From the IMG/VR virus record IMGVR_UViG_3300035698_016456, positions 1-39,408 of that record: DNA of 39,408 nucleotides, one strand, 5' to 3'. This DNA is from a virus. Position 1 is the stretch's first letter, and the number at the start of each line of letters is the position of its first letter. The notes under the pieces are model-generated. The model made no database searches, was not told the DNA's origin, and was given only the letters and a program-made list of their open reading frames with translations. Below are positions 5,570 through 15,097 of the stretch, piece by piece. A program made the position numbers and the translations under genes.

Positions 5570-6325
5570 ATGGCAAAGGCCAAAAAACCAGTTAAAAAGA
5601 AGACTACCGTCAAGAAAGATATTGACGACAGTTATCAATTTGCATTAGACGCACTTAAAGGTGTTGGTGACGATATCCGTATGGGCGATGAGGAATTGGC
5701 GGATCCGTCTATGAAAACCAGTCCAGCATGTAACTTCATGGAACTGAAAACCAAATGTGAATCCAAAACGAATGATTTTATTGATTATTTAGTTGAATTT
5801 TATTTAAGTAAAGACGTTCTAAAACTACCACACACACAATCCAAAATTGATGACGACAAAAATACATTGTCAAAACTATTATTCCAAATTGAAACGTCCG
5901 AACATGCTATAATGAGGTGTCTGGAGCGGATAGAAGTGTCACCTGAGGCGAGATTATTTGAAGTGTTGTCACAGTGCCAGCGAGCCCAAATGGATATAAT
6001 CAAACATTATGAGGCCGATAAAAAACTCATCGAAGATAATTATAAAATGATAAAAGAGACGTATGCAATTCAAAGATTAGAACTACCGGAACATACAGGT
6101 GAAATCAAACCCGTGAAAAAGAAGCGGGATATGAAAAGTATATTAAGGGACGTTCATAAATCCGTAGGTACGCTCGATGTCAAGGACCATAAAACGGGTG
6201 GTGGTGAGGATATTACAACCGATGTTGAAATTACCAATACAAAAAAACCTACAAAGAAACCAAAAAGAAAATCACAGAAAAAGGATCCTCCTCCATCCTG
6301 GCCGAAGGGAGTTAGACCAAAATAA
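5570..6325 (+). CDS. Probable small terminase subunit
   Basis: This 251-aa protein has a basic N-terminal tail (MAKAKKPVKKKTTVKKD), a central helical segment (about residues 60-180) that looks like a coiled coil or oligomerisation domain, and a very basic C-terminus (KKPTKKPKRKSQKK). It lies directly before the large terminase, and the stop and next start overlap as TAATG, which implies coupled translation. A TAGGAG ribosome site precedes the ATG. Position and domain plan match T4 gp16 (164 aa), which assembles as a ring and regulates packaging initiation. Sequence similarity alone did not identify it, so the assignment rests mainly on context. Confidence 0.55.
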   Translation: MAKAKKPVKKKTTVKKDIDDSYQFALDALKGVGDDIRMGDEELADPSMKTSPACNFMELKTKCESKTNDFIDYLVEFYLSKDVLKLPHTQSKIDDDKNTLSKLLFQIETSEHAIMRCLERIEVSPEARLFEVLSQCQRAQMDIIKHYEADKKLIEDNYKMIKETYAIQRLELPEHTGEIKPVKKKRDMKSILRDVHKSVGTLDVKDHKTGGGEDITTDVEITNTKKPTKKPKRKSQKKDPPPSWPKGVRPK

Positions 6326-6840
6326 TGGCAGTTTCAAGTAAACTCAAAGCAGAGAATATAATATGGTCAACTGAGAAGGTCAACCAGTATTTGAAAGCGA
6401 AGATGGGTAATGCCGAACAGACCTTACCAAGTCCATTTTTTGATGGGGATAAGGATGTTTTTCTTCGTAAGGGAAATCTGGAATTCGATCAGACGGATGA
6501 TGAATATGATGAGATGTGTAAATGTGCAACGGACATTGTATATTTTGCGGAGACGTATTGTCAAACCATGACCGATAACGGAATTATGATTGTAGAGTTA
6601 TATCCATACCAAAAAAGAATATTAAGGGACCTGAAGGAAAACCGTTACAATATTTGGCTTGCTGCGCGGCAGAGTGGAAAGTGTTATATTTACAATACTA
6701 AGGTTATTATATCAAATAACGGCAAAAGGGAAACCATACCATTCTTTGAATTGTATTATTCTATTGTAAAAAAACACAGGAAACTGACATTTTTTGAAAA
6801 AATAAAGATAAATTTGTATAAAATATATAATAAATTATAA
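6325..6840 (+). CDS. Large terminase, N-terminal part fused to N-intein
   Basis: Residues 1-119 are the N-terminal extein of the packaging ATPase-nuclease: a lead-in region, an adenine-binding type motif (ELYPYQKRIL, residues 91-100) and the first half of the P-loop, LAARQSGK, ending at Lys119. Residues 120-171 are the N-fragment of an intein, starting with Cys120. The frame stops at TAA (6838-6840), and the A begins the ATG of the next gene in another frame. Neither gene alone encodes a functional ATPase. Trans-splicing with the product of 6840-8717 would rebuild the P-loop ARQSGKTTT. The final protein would be about 598 aa, close to T4 gp17 (610 aa). Confidence 0.92.
   Translation: MAVSSKLKAENIIWSTEKVNQYLKAKMGNAEQTLPSPFFDGDKDVFLRKGNLEFDQTDDEYDEMCKCATDIVYFAETYCQTMTDNGIMIVELYPYQKRILRDLKENRYNIWLAARQSGKCYIYNTKVIISNNGKRETIPFFELYYSIVKKHRKLTFFEKIKINLYKIYNKL
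6682..6837 (+). other. N-fragment of split intein (52 aa)
   Basis: It starts with the splicing nucleophile Cys (TGT at 6682-6684) and the block A region CYIYNTKVIISNNGK. A basic tail follows (KKHRKLTFFEKIKINLYK). It ends before block B, so the break lies between blocks A and B. Most natural split inteins instead break near the endonuclease insertion point between blocks B and F. The AceL-TerL group of phage terminase inteins has a similarly short N-fragment (25 aa, from memory). Confidence 0.9.
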
Positions 6841-7277
6841 TGTTTAGATCTGTTTTAAAAAATATAATATTATGGATTATCCAAGCGATAGAGACCCATG
6901 AATATACATCACTATCTTTGGATCAAAACGACATTGATAAAAAGATTATGGAGTCATTTAATGCAACTGACATTAAAATTCTCACAGATAATGGATATGA
7001 ATCCATTACAGAGGTTCATAAGACTCAACCATACGACATTTGGGAAATAGAAACCCCCACGAAAAAATTAGAATGTGCCGATAAACATATTATATTTGAT
7101 GAATATATGAATGAAATATTTGTCAAGGATCTGTCAATTGGGGATGTTATTACCACAGAGGATGGAGTAGAACCTGTCATATCAATAACAAGGAAATCAC
7201 AAGCAGTTTCAATGTTCGATATATCCATAGATTCCCCAAATCATAGATACTATACAAATGGTATTTTATCCCATAAT
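6840..7277 (+). other. C-fragment of split intein (146 aa)
   Basis: It opens MFRSVLKN, an opening that, from memory, resembles the MFR start of the AceL-TerL C-intein. About 30 extra residues follow, with a hydrophobic and then an acidic stretch, before the conserved IKILTDNGYESITEV. Block B is LECADKH, with His83 kept but Ala in place of the usual Thr. Block F is MFDISIDSPNHRYYTNG, and the end is HN (His145, Asn146; 7272-7277). The next residue is Thr147, an allowed +1 nucleophile. No homing endonuclease domain is present. Confidence 0.9.
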
Positions 7278-8717
7278 ACAACCACGGCCGCATTTTTCAT
7301 GATGTGGTATTCTATGTTCCATGTTGAAAGAAATGCATTGATTGTTGCCAACAGGGCGGAGACGATGCAGGAGATTATAGATAAATGTGAAATTATTTAC
7401 AGGGAGTTACCATTTTTCTTGAAAGCTGGGATCCTGGTAAACAATAAACGACGTATGGAATTTGATAATGGATGTAGAATTATTGGTCAAGCAACCACCC
7501 CAAAACCTGCCCTTGGTTTTACCATACATTTATTATATGCGGATGAGTTTGCCCACATCCCAAAAAACATTATAGATCCATTTTATAGGTCGATGTATCC
7601 CACACTTTCAAGTTCTGAAATTTCTCGTATACTTATCACATCCACAGCAAACGGATTAAATAAGTTTGAAAAATTATATAAAGATGCTGTCCGTGGTTGG
7701 AATACATACCATGCAATTCGAGTGGATTGGTGGGAGGTTCCTGGTCGTGACGACGCATGGAAAGAAAGAGAAATTCGAAACTTTGGACAGGAATATTTCA
7801 ATCAAGAGTACGACAATCAGTTTTTATCAAACTCAAAAATACTATTAAACGGACCAGTTCTAAATTTCTGGAGGCGTATAGAGAAGCCTTTCGAATGGAG
7901 GGAGTGGGATGAATTTGAAAATTACAATATTGATTATGATGAGTTCATATGGCATCCAAATTTCATTGATTATGATTTGGAGGACGATTTTAGAAAATTT
8001 GTAATTTCAATTGACGTATCGGAGAGTATAGAATTGGATTATAATGTTGTCAATGTATTTGAAATTGAACCCCTATCACTTGCAAAGATCCGGACTCTGG
8101 ACAAATATAGAGACGAGACGGATTTCTTCCGGTTGAAACAAGTTGGTTTATATCGATCAAATAAGATACCAATTCCAGAACTTGCAAAGTTGATATCAGT
8201 ATTAATGTTCAAGATATTGGGTGTAGAAAACATTATCACTATAATTGAGATGAACCGTGCAGAAGGGCAACAGATCCACGAAATACTAAAAACGGCGGGT
8301 GATTATGATGATAACCTTATGCTACAAACATTACACACAGTAAATTCTATCAACAAAAAAGTTGGTGTGAAATTGACCAAGGTAAGTAAGCCACTTTTCT
8401 GTAAAACTTTCAAGAATATGGCAGCAACCGGAAAAATTATATTACAAGAGCCTGGATCCGTTTTGGAAGCAGTAGAATTTGGACAAAGTGGGGGAGGTAT
8501 ATTTGAAGGTCAGGGAGACAACGATGACATTATAATTACTGCAGTAAATTGTTCACCATTATTTGAAAGCGAAGAGTACGTAGAAATGGTTGGTGGCATG
8601 TATGATGAATTACCTTCGGCGCATTCGACGGCAATAGATGAGAGGTTGGATCAAGTACCGGACAATATGTTTGTAAGTGACGACATAGATTATTCTGTGG
8701 TAGGTGAATACTCATAG
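6840..8717 (+). CDS. C-intein fused to large terminase C-terminal part (ATPase and nuclease)
   Basis: Residues 1-146 are the C-fragment of the intein, ending SHN (Asn146). Residues 147-625 are the C-extein. It begins TTT, completing the P-loop, then has Walker B LLYADE (231-236), the coupling motif ITSTANG (266-272) and an RNase H-like nuclease with D392 (SIDVSE), E470 (IIEMN) and D562/D563 (DNDDIII). These match the T4 gp17 plan of ATPase followed by headful nuclease. The start overlaps the previous stop as TAATG, so both halves come from one mRNA by coupled translation. The protein acts at the prohead portal. Its activity should depend on trans-splicing, because the P-loop is divided between the two genes. 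Confidence 0.92.
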   Translation: MFRSVLKNIILWIIQAIETHEYTSLSLDQNDIDKKIMESFNATDIKILTDNGYESITEVHKTQPYDIWEIETPTKKLECADKHIIFDEYMNEIFVKDLSIGDVITTEDGVEPVISITRKSQAVSMFDISIDSPNHRYYTNGILSHNTTTAAFFMMWYSMFHVERNALIVANRAETMQEIIDKCEIIYRELPFFLKAGILVNNKRRMEFDNGCRIIGQATTPKPALGFTIHLLYADEFAHIPKNIIDPFYRSMYPTLSSSEISRILITSTANGLNKFEKLYKDAVRGWNTYHAIRVDWWEVPGRDDAWKEREIRNFGQEYFNQEYDNQFLSNSKILLNGPVLNFWRRIEKPFEWREWDEFENYNIDYDEFIWHPNFIDYDLEDDFRKFVISIDVSESIELDYNVVNVFEIEPLSLAKIRTLDKYRDETDFFRLKQVGLYRSNKIPIPELAKLISVLMFKILGVENIITIIEMNRAEGQQIHEILKTAGDYDDNLMLQTLHTVNSINKKVGVKLTKVSKPLFCKTFKNMAATGKIILQEPGSVLEAVEFGQSGGGIFEGQGDNDDIIITAVNCSPLFESEEYVEMVGGMYDELPSAHSTAIDERLDQVPDNMFVSDDIDYSVVGEYS

Positions 8718-13324: not shown

Positions 13325-15097
13325 ATGGAAATTATAAATGACATGGTTAAAAATTCAGAAAATCTTTTGGAATTTTTTAAAAAATATAAAATTTTAAAAA
13401 AGACAAATTCTGATGTTGAGGCATATATTATATCAAAAACTTCATTTTTAGAAGAAAGATATTCAAATATCCATATAAATCAAAGACTTGTCCATATTTA
13501 CAATAATTATTACGAGTTTTACGTTTGTGAATTTTGCGGGGAATTAGTTCATAAATATGTGAGTGTAGATTTAAAAAATAATGTTTATTATAATACAATT
13601 TGTAAAAATAAAAAATGTATAGTATTGAAACGTAAGGCCACCAATTTAAAAAAATATGGGGTTGAAAACGCCGCCCAATCTAACACCATTAAAGACAAAA
13701 TGAAGGCCACCAATTTAAAAAAATATGGGGTTGAAAACGCCGCCCAATCTAACACCATTAAAGACAAAATGAAGGCCACCAATTTAAAAAAATATGGGGT
13801 TGAAAATGTATCTCAATCGGAAGTTATAAAGAAAAGGAAGATATCCACATGCTTTATTAATTTCGGGGTTGATTATCCCATGCAATCGAAAGTTGTTCAG
13901 GAAAAATCGGAAGATACTTGTATGTCAGAATATGGAAAAAAATACACATTCCAGACGGATAATTTTAAAATGAAGGCGAGACAGACCTGGAAAGAAAATT
14001 ATGGTGTTGGGAATCCAAGCCAATCCGAAAAAATTAAAAATTTAGCTCAACAGACATACGCAAAGAATTTTATTGATAATTCATTTATTTTTATTGATCT
14101 GAAAAAGAGAAAATTTGAAATGATAAATTATATGAGGAGTGTATTTACGTTAAGATGTCCAAAATGTGATAAAATTTTCAATATCCATCATAAATTATTA
14201 TATAGTAGGTTGTATAATCACTGTGTAGAATTATGCGTCAATTGTAACCCTCTTGATTTACATATATCAGGACAAGAGATAAAATTAAATGAATTTATAA
14301 ATTCTCTTGGGGTTGAAACCGAACAATCCAACCGAACAATCCTTGGTAATAGGGAAATTGACATTTTTATACCCTCCATGAAAATTGGATTTGAATTTAA
14401 CGGAATTTATTGGCACTCGGATAAGTATAAATCTAAAGATTATCATCAGGAAAAGAAATTTCTTGCGGCAAAGAATAACATCAATTTAATTCACATTTGG
14501 AAGGATGACTGGAATTTTAAAAATGAAATTGTCAAAAGTAGGATTCGAGCTGTCCTTGGGATATCGAAACGTATCTATGGCCGTAAAACTGAAATAAGAG
14601 AGGTCTCCTCCGTTGTCTCCAGGGAGTTTTTAAATATAAATCATATACAAGGACATATAAATTCAAAACATCGTATAGGGCTGTTCTATGAGAGTAATTT
14701 AGTAGCATTAATGACCTTTGGTAAAAGAAATGTTCGAACCGAGATGTTAAGATATTGTAATCTATTAAATTATACTGTCATTGGAGGATTTTCAAAGCTG
14801 TTGAAATATTATATTCAAACATATTCACCGAAAGAAATATTTTCATATGCCGATTTGGACTGGAGTAACCCAAATAAAAATGTATATTTAACGACAGGAT
14901 TTAAATTTTGTGGAAACACTGTTCCAGGATATAGTTGGACAAAGTCCGGCATACGATATGGAAGACAACAATTCCAGAAACATAAATTGGTAAATGAAGG
15001 ATTTGACAGTAAAATGACAGAGAGTGAAATTATGCATGACCGAGGATACAATAAGATATATAACAGTGGTAACGGCAAATATTTATATGAAAAATAA
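13325..15097 (+). CDS. EDxHD (Vsr-like) homing endonuclease with repeat array
   Basis: This 590-aa free-standing endonuclease has a zinc-finger-like module (C68, C71, C93, C98), then an array of about 23-residue helical repeats (KKYGVENAAQSNTIKDK and variants, roughly residues 104-245). A second Cys-rich module (LRCPKCDKIF, CVELCVNC, about 275-312) follows, and then a Vsr-like nuclease. Its likely active site is Glu317 (GQEIKLNEF), Asp346 (REIDIF), Glu357 and His364/Asp366 (EFNGIYWHSD). This fits the EDxHD homing endonuclease family, first described together with split inteins in fractured phage genes. It lies downstream of the tube gene, where T4 has its portal gene. Its target site is unknown. 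A GAGG site precedes the ATG. Confidence 0.85.
   Translation: MEIINDMVKNSENLLEFFKKYKILKKTNSDVEAYIISKTSFLEERYSNIHINQRLVHIYNNYYEFYVCEFCGELVHKYVSVDLKNNVYYNTICKNKKCIVLKRKATNLKKYGVENAAQSNTIKDKMKATNLKKYGVENAAQSNTIKDKMKATNLKKYGVENVSQSEVIKKRKISTCFINFGVDYPMQSKVVQEKSEDTCMSEYGKKYTFQTDNFKMKARQTWKENYGVGNPSQSEKIKNLAQQTYAKNFIDNSFIFIDLKKRKFEMINYMRSVFTLRCPKCDKIFNIHHKLLYSRLYNHCVELCVNCNPLDLHISGQEIKLNEFINSLGVETEQSNRTILGNREIDIFIPSMKIGFEFNGIYWHSDKYKSKDYHQEKKFLAAKNNINLIHIWKDDWNFKNEIVKSRIRAVLGISKRIYGRKTEIREVSSVVSREFLNINHIQGHINSKHRIGLFYESNLVALMTFGKRNVRTEMLRYCNLLNYTVIGGFSKLLKYYIQTYSPKEIFSYADLDWSNPNKNVYLTTGFKFCGNTVPGYSWTKSGIRYGRQQFQKHKLVNEGFDSKMTESEIMHDRGYNKIYNSGNGKYLYEK
13634..13806 (+). repeat. Tandem 69-bp repeat inside the endonuclease gene
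   Basis: Two perfect 69-bp copies (13634-13702, 13703-13771) are followed by the first 35 bases of a third (13772-13806). Each encodes one 23-residue helical repeat. DNA-level identity means the duplication is recent. An assembly or copy-number artefact should be kept in mind. Confidence 0.92.

What the first reader, a model, noticed from the sequence alone, without database searches (positions are those of the whole stretch)
6754..6960. Long charged extensions at the intein break
Compared with what I recall of AceL-TerL (25-aa N-fragment; C-fragment beginning MFR then directly the IKIL region), this intein has about 25 extra basic residues on the N-fragment (KKHRKLTFFEKIKINLYK) and about 30 extra hydrophobic to acidic residues near the C-fragment start. 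Opposite charges at the two ends could be a docking device for the halves, or a remnant of a lost insert.
Basis: partly seen in the sequence, partly recalled or inferred. Interest (0 to 1): 0.7.

Follow-up and report, generated by a model that had tools for sequence, protein, structure and literature searches.

The report
Helical arms at split-intein break
A phage DNA-packaging gene is broken in two by a split self-splicing protein element, and the extra tails at the two broken ends are a conserved pair of helices, found in dozens of related phages, that probably help the two halves find and grip each other before the protein is spliced together.

Summary
The window's TerL carries a split intein (IntN 6682-6837, IntC 6840-7277, TAATG overlap) with about 26 extra residues on each side of the break compared with the solved atypically split inteins VidaL and Cat. 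The tails are not noise. Dozens of non-redundant TerL inteins from metagenomic phages have both arms, under purifying selection (dN/dS 0.31 and 0.38). AlphaFold predicts two helices, joined by a three-residue turn in a naturally fused relative. Unsplit inteins at the same site have a loop instead.

'Opposite charges' is not a family trait: both arms are on average basic (+3.3 and +2.3). 'Remnant of a lost insert' is half right. A homing-endonuclease-like gene sits between the arms in most relatives. It has been lost repeatedly, often leaving relics, and is gone in the window. The arms flank it and outlive it.

In one split/fused pair the intein cores are 99-100% identical while both arms are replaced at sharp boundaries, so the arms form an exchangeable module. 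In a 735-kb phage the halves lie 12 kb apart and keep both arms.

Best reading: a trans-bridging helix pair that aids assembly of the halves. Direct contact and an effect on splicing are not shown.

The parts
6325..6840 (+). N-half gene: TerL N-terminal part up to the Walker A GK, then IntN
   Evidence: ORF; PHROG terminase large subunit match
6682..6759 (+). IntN core, C1 to ELYY
   Evidence: translation; alignment A12
6760..6837 (+). N arm: SIVKKHRKLTFFEKIKINLYKIYNKL, predicted helix
   Evidence: conserved motif KLTFLEKIKxxLYK in relatives; helix in homologous models; dN/dS 0.31
6838..6842 (+). TAATG: stop of the N half overlapping the start of the C half; the endonuclease-like gene of relatives is absent here
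   Evidence: sequence; gap -1 and no credible endonuclease relic
6840..8717 (+). C-half gene: IntC followed by the rest of TerL (+1 Thr)
   Evidence: ORF; Pfam Terminase_6N
6840..6917 (+). C arm: MFRSVLKNIILWIIQAIETHEYTSLS, predicted helix
   Evidence: alignments A1, A11; helix in homologous models; dN/dS 0.38, amphipathic period 102 degrees
6918..6971 (+). Linker LDQNDIDKKIMESFNATD between arm and core, with invariant D28 and K34-K35 of IntC
   Evidence: alignment A11
6972..7277 (+). IntC core: IKIL ... CADKH ... HRYYTNGILSHN
   Evidence: VidaL, Cat and gp41-1 matches; Hint fold of homologous models

Best explanation
The two extensions are the halves of one helical hairpin that straddles the break of an atypically split TerL intein. 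When N- and C-half proteins are made separately, the N arm and C arm pair, mainly through hydrophobic faces. This bridges the break, holds the short IntN against IntC, and so raises the local concentration for folding of the Hint domain and trans-splicing of TerL. The tip of this hairpin is where an endonuclease-like gene sits in most relatives; that gene has been lost repeatedly, and completely in the window, where the halves are now coupled by a TAATG overlap. Shown: conservation, purifying selection, predicted helices, position, joint exchange, repeated loss of the endonuclease-like gene. Inferred: arm-arm contact, benefit for splicing, the order of evolutionary events.
For: Both arms recur in dozens of non-redundant split TerL inteins. 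dN/dS is 0.31 (N arm), 0.38 (C arm), 0.17 (C core) over 17 pairs. AlphaFold2 on the naturally fused relative L045 gives helices at 112-126 and 130-144 (ten-residue blocks at pLDDT 91, 78, 93, 91) with a three-residue turn; on split L044 read through its stops it gives helices 117-134 and 152-175 with a low-confidence linker. Both models are complete Hint folds (VidaL Z 17.9 and 17.5). Unsplit inteins at the same site in Ackermannviridae lack the arms and branch outside the arm-bearing clade (support 99/93). L040 versus L045: IntN core DNA 75/75, C core 365/369, but N arm 32/60 and C arm 44/69, with boundaries at LYY and LDEND. In LR756501 the halves lie about 12.4 kb apart, both with arms. Arms persist where the endonuclease-like gene is gone.
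Against: No coordinates or PAE were available, so contact between the arms is inferred from secondary structure and chain topology. The window's own pair could not be folded together. N-arm/C-arm covariation is weak and not specific to the arms (partial Mantel 0.19; other IntC windows reach 0.30). L052 and L063 share nearly the same N half (core 100%, arm 94%) with very different C arms (27%), which speaks against tight pair specificity. The N arm's hydrophobic periodicity is not significant at 100 degrees (p 0.34). Split Campylobacter phage F379 has no long arms, so arms are not needed for a split TerL intein.
Confidence: 0.62

Rival explanations
1. The hairpin is a structural insertion of the intein fold, kept because it stabilises the Hint domain whether fused or split. 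It bridges the break only because the endonuclease-like gene happened to insert at its tip; it is not a dedicated docking device.
For: Fused relatives L045, L060, L080 and L098 keep both helices although they need no docking. The tree is open at many forks and L008 is a long branch, so whether the hairpin preceded the split is unresolved.
Against: Unsplit outgroup inteins at the same site do without it. L045 is nested inside split lineages (support 100/93 with L040), so at least that fused form looks derived. Fused forms are four scattered rows among many split ones.
Confidence: 0.25
2. Electrostatic docking: a basic N arm attracts an acidic C arm.
For: In the window the N arm is about +7 and the C arm plus linker is net negative (own count of the sequence).
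Against: Family means are +3.3 and +2.3; the C arm is usually basic.
Confidence: 0.04
3. The arms are leftover coding sequence of the lost endonuclease-like gene or its flanks, without function in splicing.
For: An endonuclease-like ORF lies exactly between the arms in most relatives, with a decay series of shorter gaps, and arms can be exchanged together with presence or absence of that gene.
Against: The relics found lie in the gap between the halves; the window's arms have no credible match to these ORFs (best E 0.17). Arms are under purifying selection and persist where the gene is gone.
Confidence: 0.06

Closest known systems
Atypically split (S1-site) inteins: AceL-TerL, the consensus design Cat (6dsl), VidaL (6vgv), PolB16 OarG (8cpn)
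   Same: Short IntN and long IntC, Hint fold; IntC core aligns with VidaL and Cat and models match VidaL at Z about 18.
   Different: IntN of 52 aa rather than the 15-25 given for this kind (PMC10189870, PMC11923092), and a helix arm on each side of the break.
Fractured genes: split inteins with a free-standing homing endonuclease gene between the halves (Dassa et al. 2009, not held here; listed in the references of PMC10448857; content from memory)
   Same: Relatives have an endonuclease-like ORF between the halves.
   Different: In the window the gene is entirely lost; arms at the break were not found described in the papers searched.
Unsplit TerL inteins of Ackermannviridae (Kuja, VAP7, SenALZ1)
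   Same: Same insertion site after the Walker A GK, related IntC core.
   Different: Single ORF, loop instead of arms.
Engineered leucine-zipper-assisted intein splicing (PMC7338344)
   Same: Helix pairing used to bring the halves together.
   Different: Artificial zippers; here the helices are natural, intein-encoded and removed by splicing.

Membership tests
Class 1 intein (Hint domain) | Cys/Ser1, motif-B histidine, C-terminal His-Asn, +1 nucleophile | tested here: met
   C1 at 6682, CADKH, SHN|T; Hint fold of homologous models. Pfam Intein_splicing matches only below its cut-off.
Class 1 intein (Hint domain) | Splices in an experiment | not testable with these tools
   No assay data; inferred from intact residues and an otherwise intact TerL.
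Atypically split intein | Break near the N-terminus, before the bulk of the Hint domain | tested here: met
   Break after the first 26 core residues plus the arm.
Cat/VidaL-type atypical intein | No long extension at the break (IntN 15-25 aa; IntC of Cat enters its core almost directly) | tested here: not met
   IntN is 52 aa and 44 residues precede IKIL; Cat and VidaL align only from residue 30-44.
Fractured-gene split intein | Endonuclease gene between the halves | tested here: not met
   Gap -1, no credible relic in the window; met in most relatives.
T4-like TerL (gp17) | Terminase sequence on both sides of the intein | tested here: met
   Pfam PF03237 on the C half and PHROG terminase matches on both halves.

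The most novel reading that the evidence does not exclude
The arms are a natural, exchangeable dimerisation module of split inteins: a helix pair encoded on the two flanks of an endonuclease cassette, so that invasion of an intein by the cassette supplies the very clamp that lets the broken intein reassemble in trans and thus makes the insertion tolerable.
Probability: 0.25. Interest if true: 0.82.

Novelty: new variant of a known kind. Interest (0 to 1): 0.62.

Why it matters
If right, nature already uses built-in helix clamps to reassemble split inteins, something engineers add by hand. The family offers ready controls: fused and split versions of nearly the same intein, swapped arms on identical cores, and halves kilobases apart. 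It makes the question of how a gene survives being broken by an endonuclease gene directly testable.

Tried and rejected
The first single-sequence viral scan found nothing. MAFFT alignments mixing separate N and C fragments misplaced the N rows; solved by using in-frame read-through rows. Per-sequence hydrophobic moments were rarely significant. A first dN/dS run used saturated pairs and was discarded. Covariation between arms is not specific. No PDB relative of IntN or of the one inter-arm ORF tested was found by sequence. Literature searches in the open library found no report of such arms; key papers (Dassa 2009 and the original AceL, Cat and VidaL papers) are not held or were not found, so this is weak evidence of novelty.

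Full report
Observation. The window encodes a T4-like TerL broken into two ORFs at the Walker A lysine. The N half ends in an IntN of 52 residues (6682-6837), the C half begins with an IntC of 146 residues (6840-7277), and stop and start overlap as TAATG. No clear Shine-Dalgarno sequence is visible before the C-half start, so coupled re-initiation is likely (inference from sequence). After the ELYY of IntN come 26 residues, and before the LDQND of IntC another 26, then an 18-residue linker to the IKIL strand. The nearest solved inteins, VidaL and Cat, align only from IntC residue 30-44, and with a family profile the strong intein matches start at position 39 or later.

Relatives. A tblastn search of phage records found inteins at the same site in many phages. 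Ackermannviridae such as Kuja, VAP7 and SenALZ1 have the intein as one uninterrupted ORF with a loop where the break would be; Campylobacter phage F379 has a split form with a nuclease-like ORF between short halves. Two huge uncultured phages have IntC with the same C arm end to end. A profile scan of IMG/VR gave 39 loci, and a second scan found at least 508 relatives, of which the best 80 were kept. Among 100 loci, 72 were classed as split, 12 as contiguous and 16 lacked an N half in the stretch held.

Conservation. The N arm has the consensus (K)LTFLEKIKIKLYKxYxxLE, the C arm MKKILKxIIxFLIELIEKYEYRNLSLDENDISKKI. One exception is L024, whose IntN seems cut short. In 17 pairs with related cores, dN/dS is 0.31 (0.22-0.44) for the N arm, 0.38 (0.26-0.58) for the C arm and 0.17 (0.13-0.21) for the C core: the arms are constrained, though less than the core. 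The C arm shows a helical period of 102 degrees (p 0.014); the N arm does not reach significance (p 0.34).

Structure. L045 is a natural one-ORF intein with both arms joined. Its AlphaFold2 model has helices 112-126 and 130-144 with a three-residue turn; mean pLDDT is 81.8 overall, and the ten-residue blocks from 111 to 150 average 91, 78, 93 and 91. L044 is a natural split pair whose halves lie in the same frame 60 nt apart; read through its stops it gives helices 117-134 and 152-175 and a poorly predicted linker. Both models fold as complete Hint domains, matched by VidaL and other inteins. Coordinates were not returned, so packing of the helices on each other is inferred from the short turn and equal lengths.

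The lost insert. Gaps between halves fall into about 1 kb or more (an ORF with weak DUF559/MTES_1575 nuclease matches or a match to the uncharacterised phrog_22677) and short ones of -1 to 589 nt. Most short gaps hold relics of that ORF, for example L013 with 68 residues 96% identical to the ORF tail of L020; the window, L068, L082 and L086 have none that is credible. On the core tree the presence of a long gap changes at least 12 times. The insert was therefore lost many times, and the arms stayed.

Exchange as a module. L040 (split, with the gap ORF) and L045 (fused, without) have IntN core DNA identical at 75/75 and C core 365/369, while the N arm is 32/60 and the C arm 44/69, with edges at LYY and LDEND. 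In three other pairs (L013/L025, L019/L027, L020/L032) exteins are 93-100% identical but both intein halves, arms included, differ (IntN 21-27%, C arm 38-48%). Against strict matching, L052 and L063 share one N half with different C arms, and the covariation test is not specific to the arms.

Distance. In the 735-kb record LR756501 the N half (ending ...GKLYYQTLAKHRKLTTLEKVKVFLYKLLEKLD) and the C half are about 12.4 kb apart with other genes between. Such halves must meet after translation, and both keep their arms.

Interpretation. The simplest account is a helical hairpin bridging the break that helps the halves assemble (0.62). The main rival is a structural insert of the fold that only incidentally spans the break (0.25). 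Charge attraction is disfavoured because both arms are basic on average. The most novel reading, not excluded, is that the endonuclease cassette carries both helix codings on its flanks, so that breaking the intein supplies its own clamp; the sharp module edges in L040/L045 suggest this, but it rests on one clear pair.

Known and new. Split TerL inteins, atypical split sites and intervening endonuclease genes are known kinds. The paired helical arms, their retention after loss of the insert and their exchange as a unit were not found in the papers available here; several key papers are not held, so novelty is provisional.

Noticed in passing
window 13325-15097 (+): 590-aa free-standing homing-endonuclease-like protein: DUF7487 with TNLKKYGVENAAQS repeats and a weak MTES_1575 nuclease match.
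   Followed up: partly
L047 2995-6411 (+): The TerL C half carries what looks like a second, larger intein in its nuclease part (CVPGDTLIITNDG ... SYTANGNIVHNC).
   Followed up: no
L005 1985-4204 (Vibrio phage VP-1): TerL runs into a GIY-YIG-like endonuclease sequence, with a terminase-like protein annotated as the next gene: probably an intron or inserted endonuclease.
   Followed up: no
L006 2456-3385 (Salicola phage SCTP-2): IntC half without long arms followed, within TerL, by the start of another intein-like sequence (CLDGETTVKLRDKESGEV).
   Followed up: no
L101/L108 and L001 (LR756501): N and C halves of TerL are about 12.4 kb apart on the same strand; a second, weaker N-half-like match lies at 700589-700939 (L102).
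   Followed up: partly
L013/L025, L019/L027, L020/L032: Two clearly different split-intein alleles occupy the same site in phages with nearly identical exteins, suggesting recent replacement or homing.
   Followed up: partly
L024 1826-1933 (+): N-half ORF is broken and IntN looks truncated; possibly a frameshift or sequencing error.
   Followed up: no
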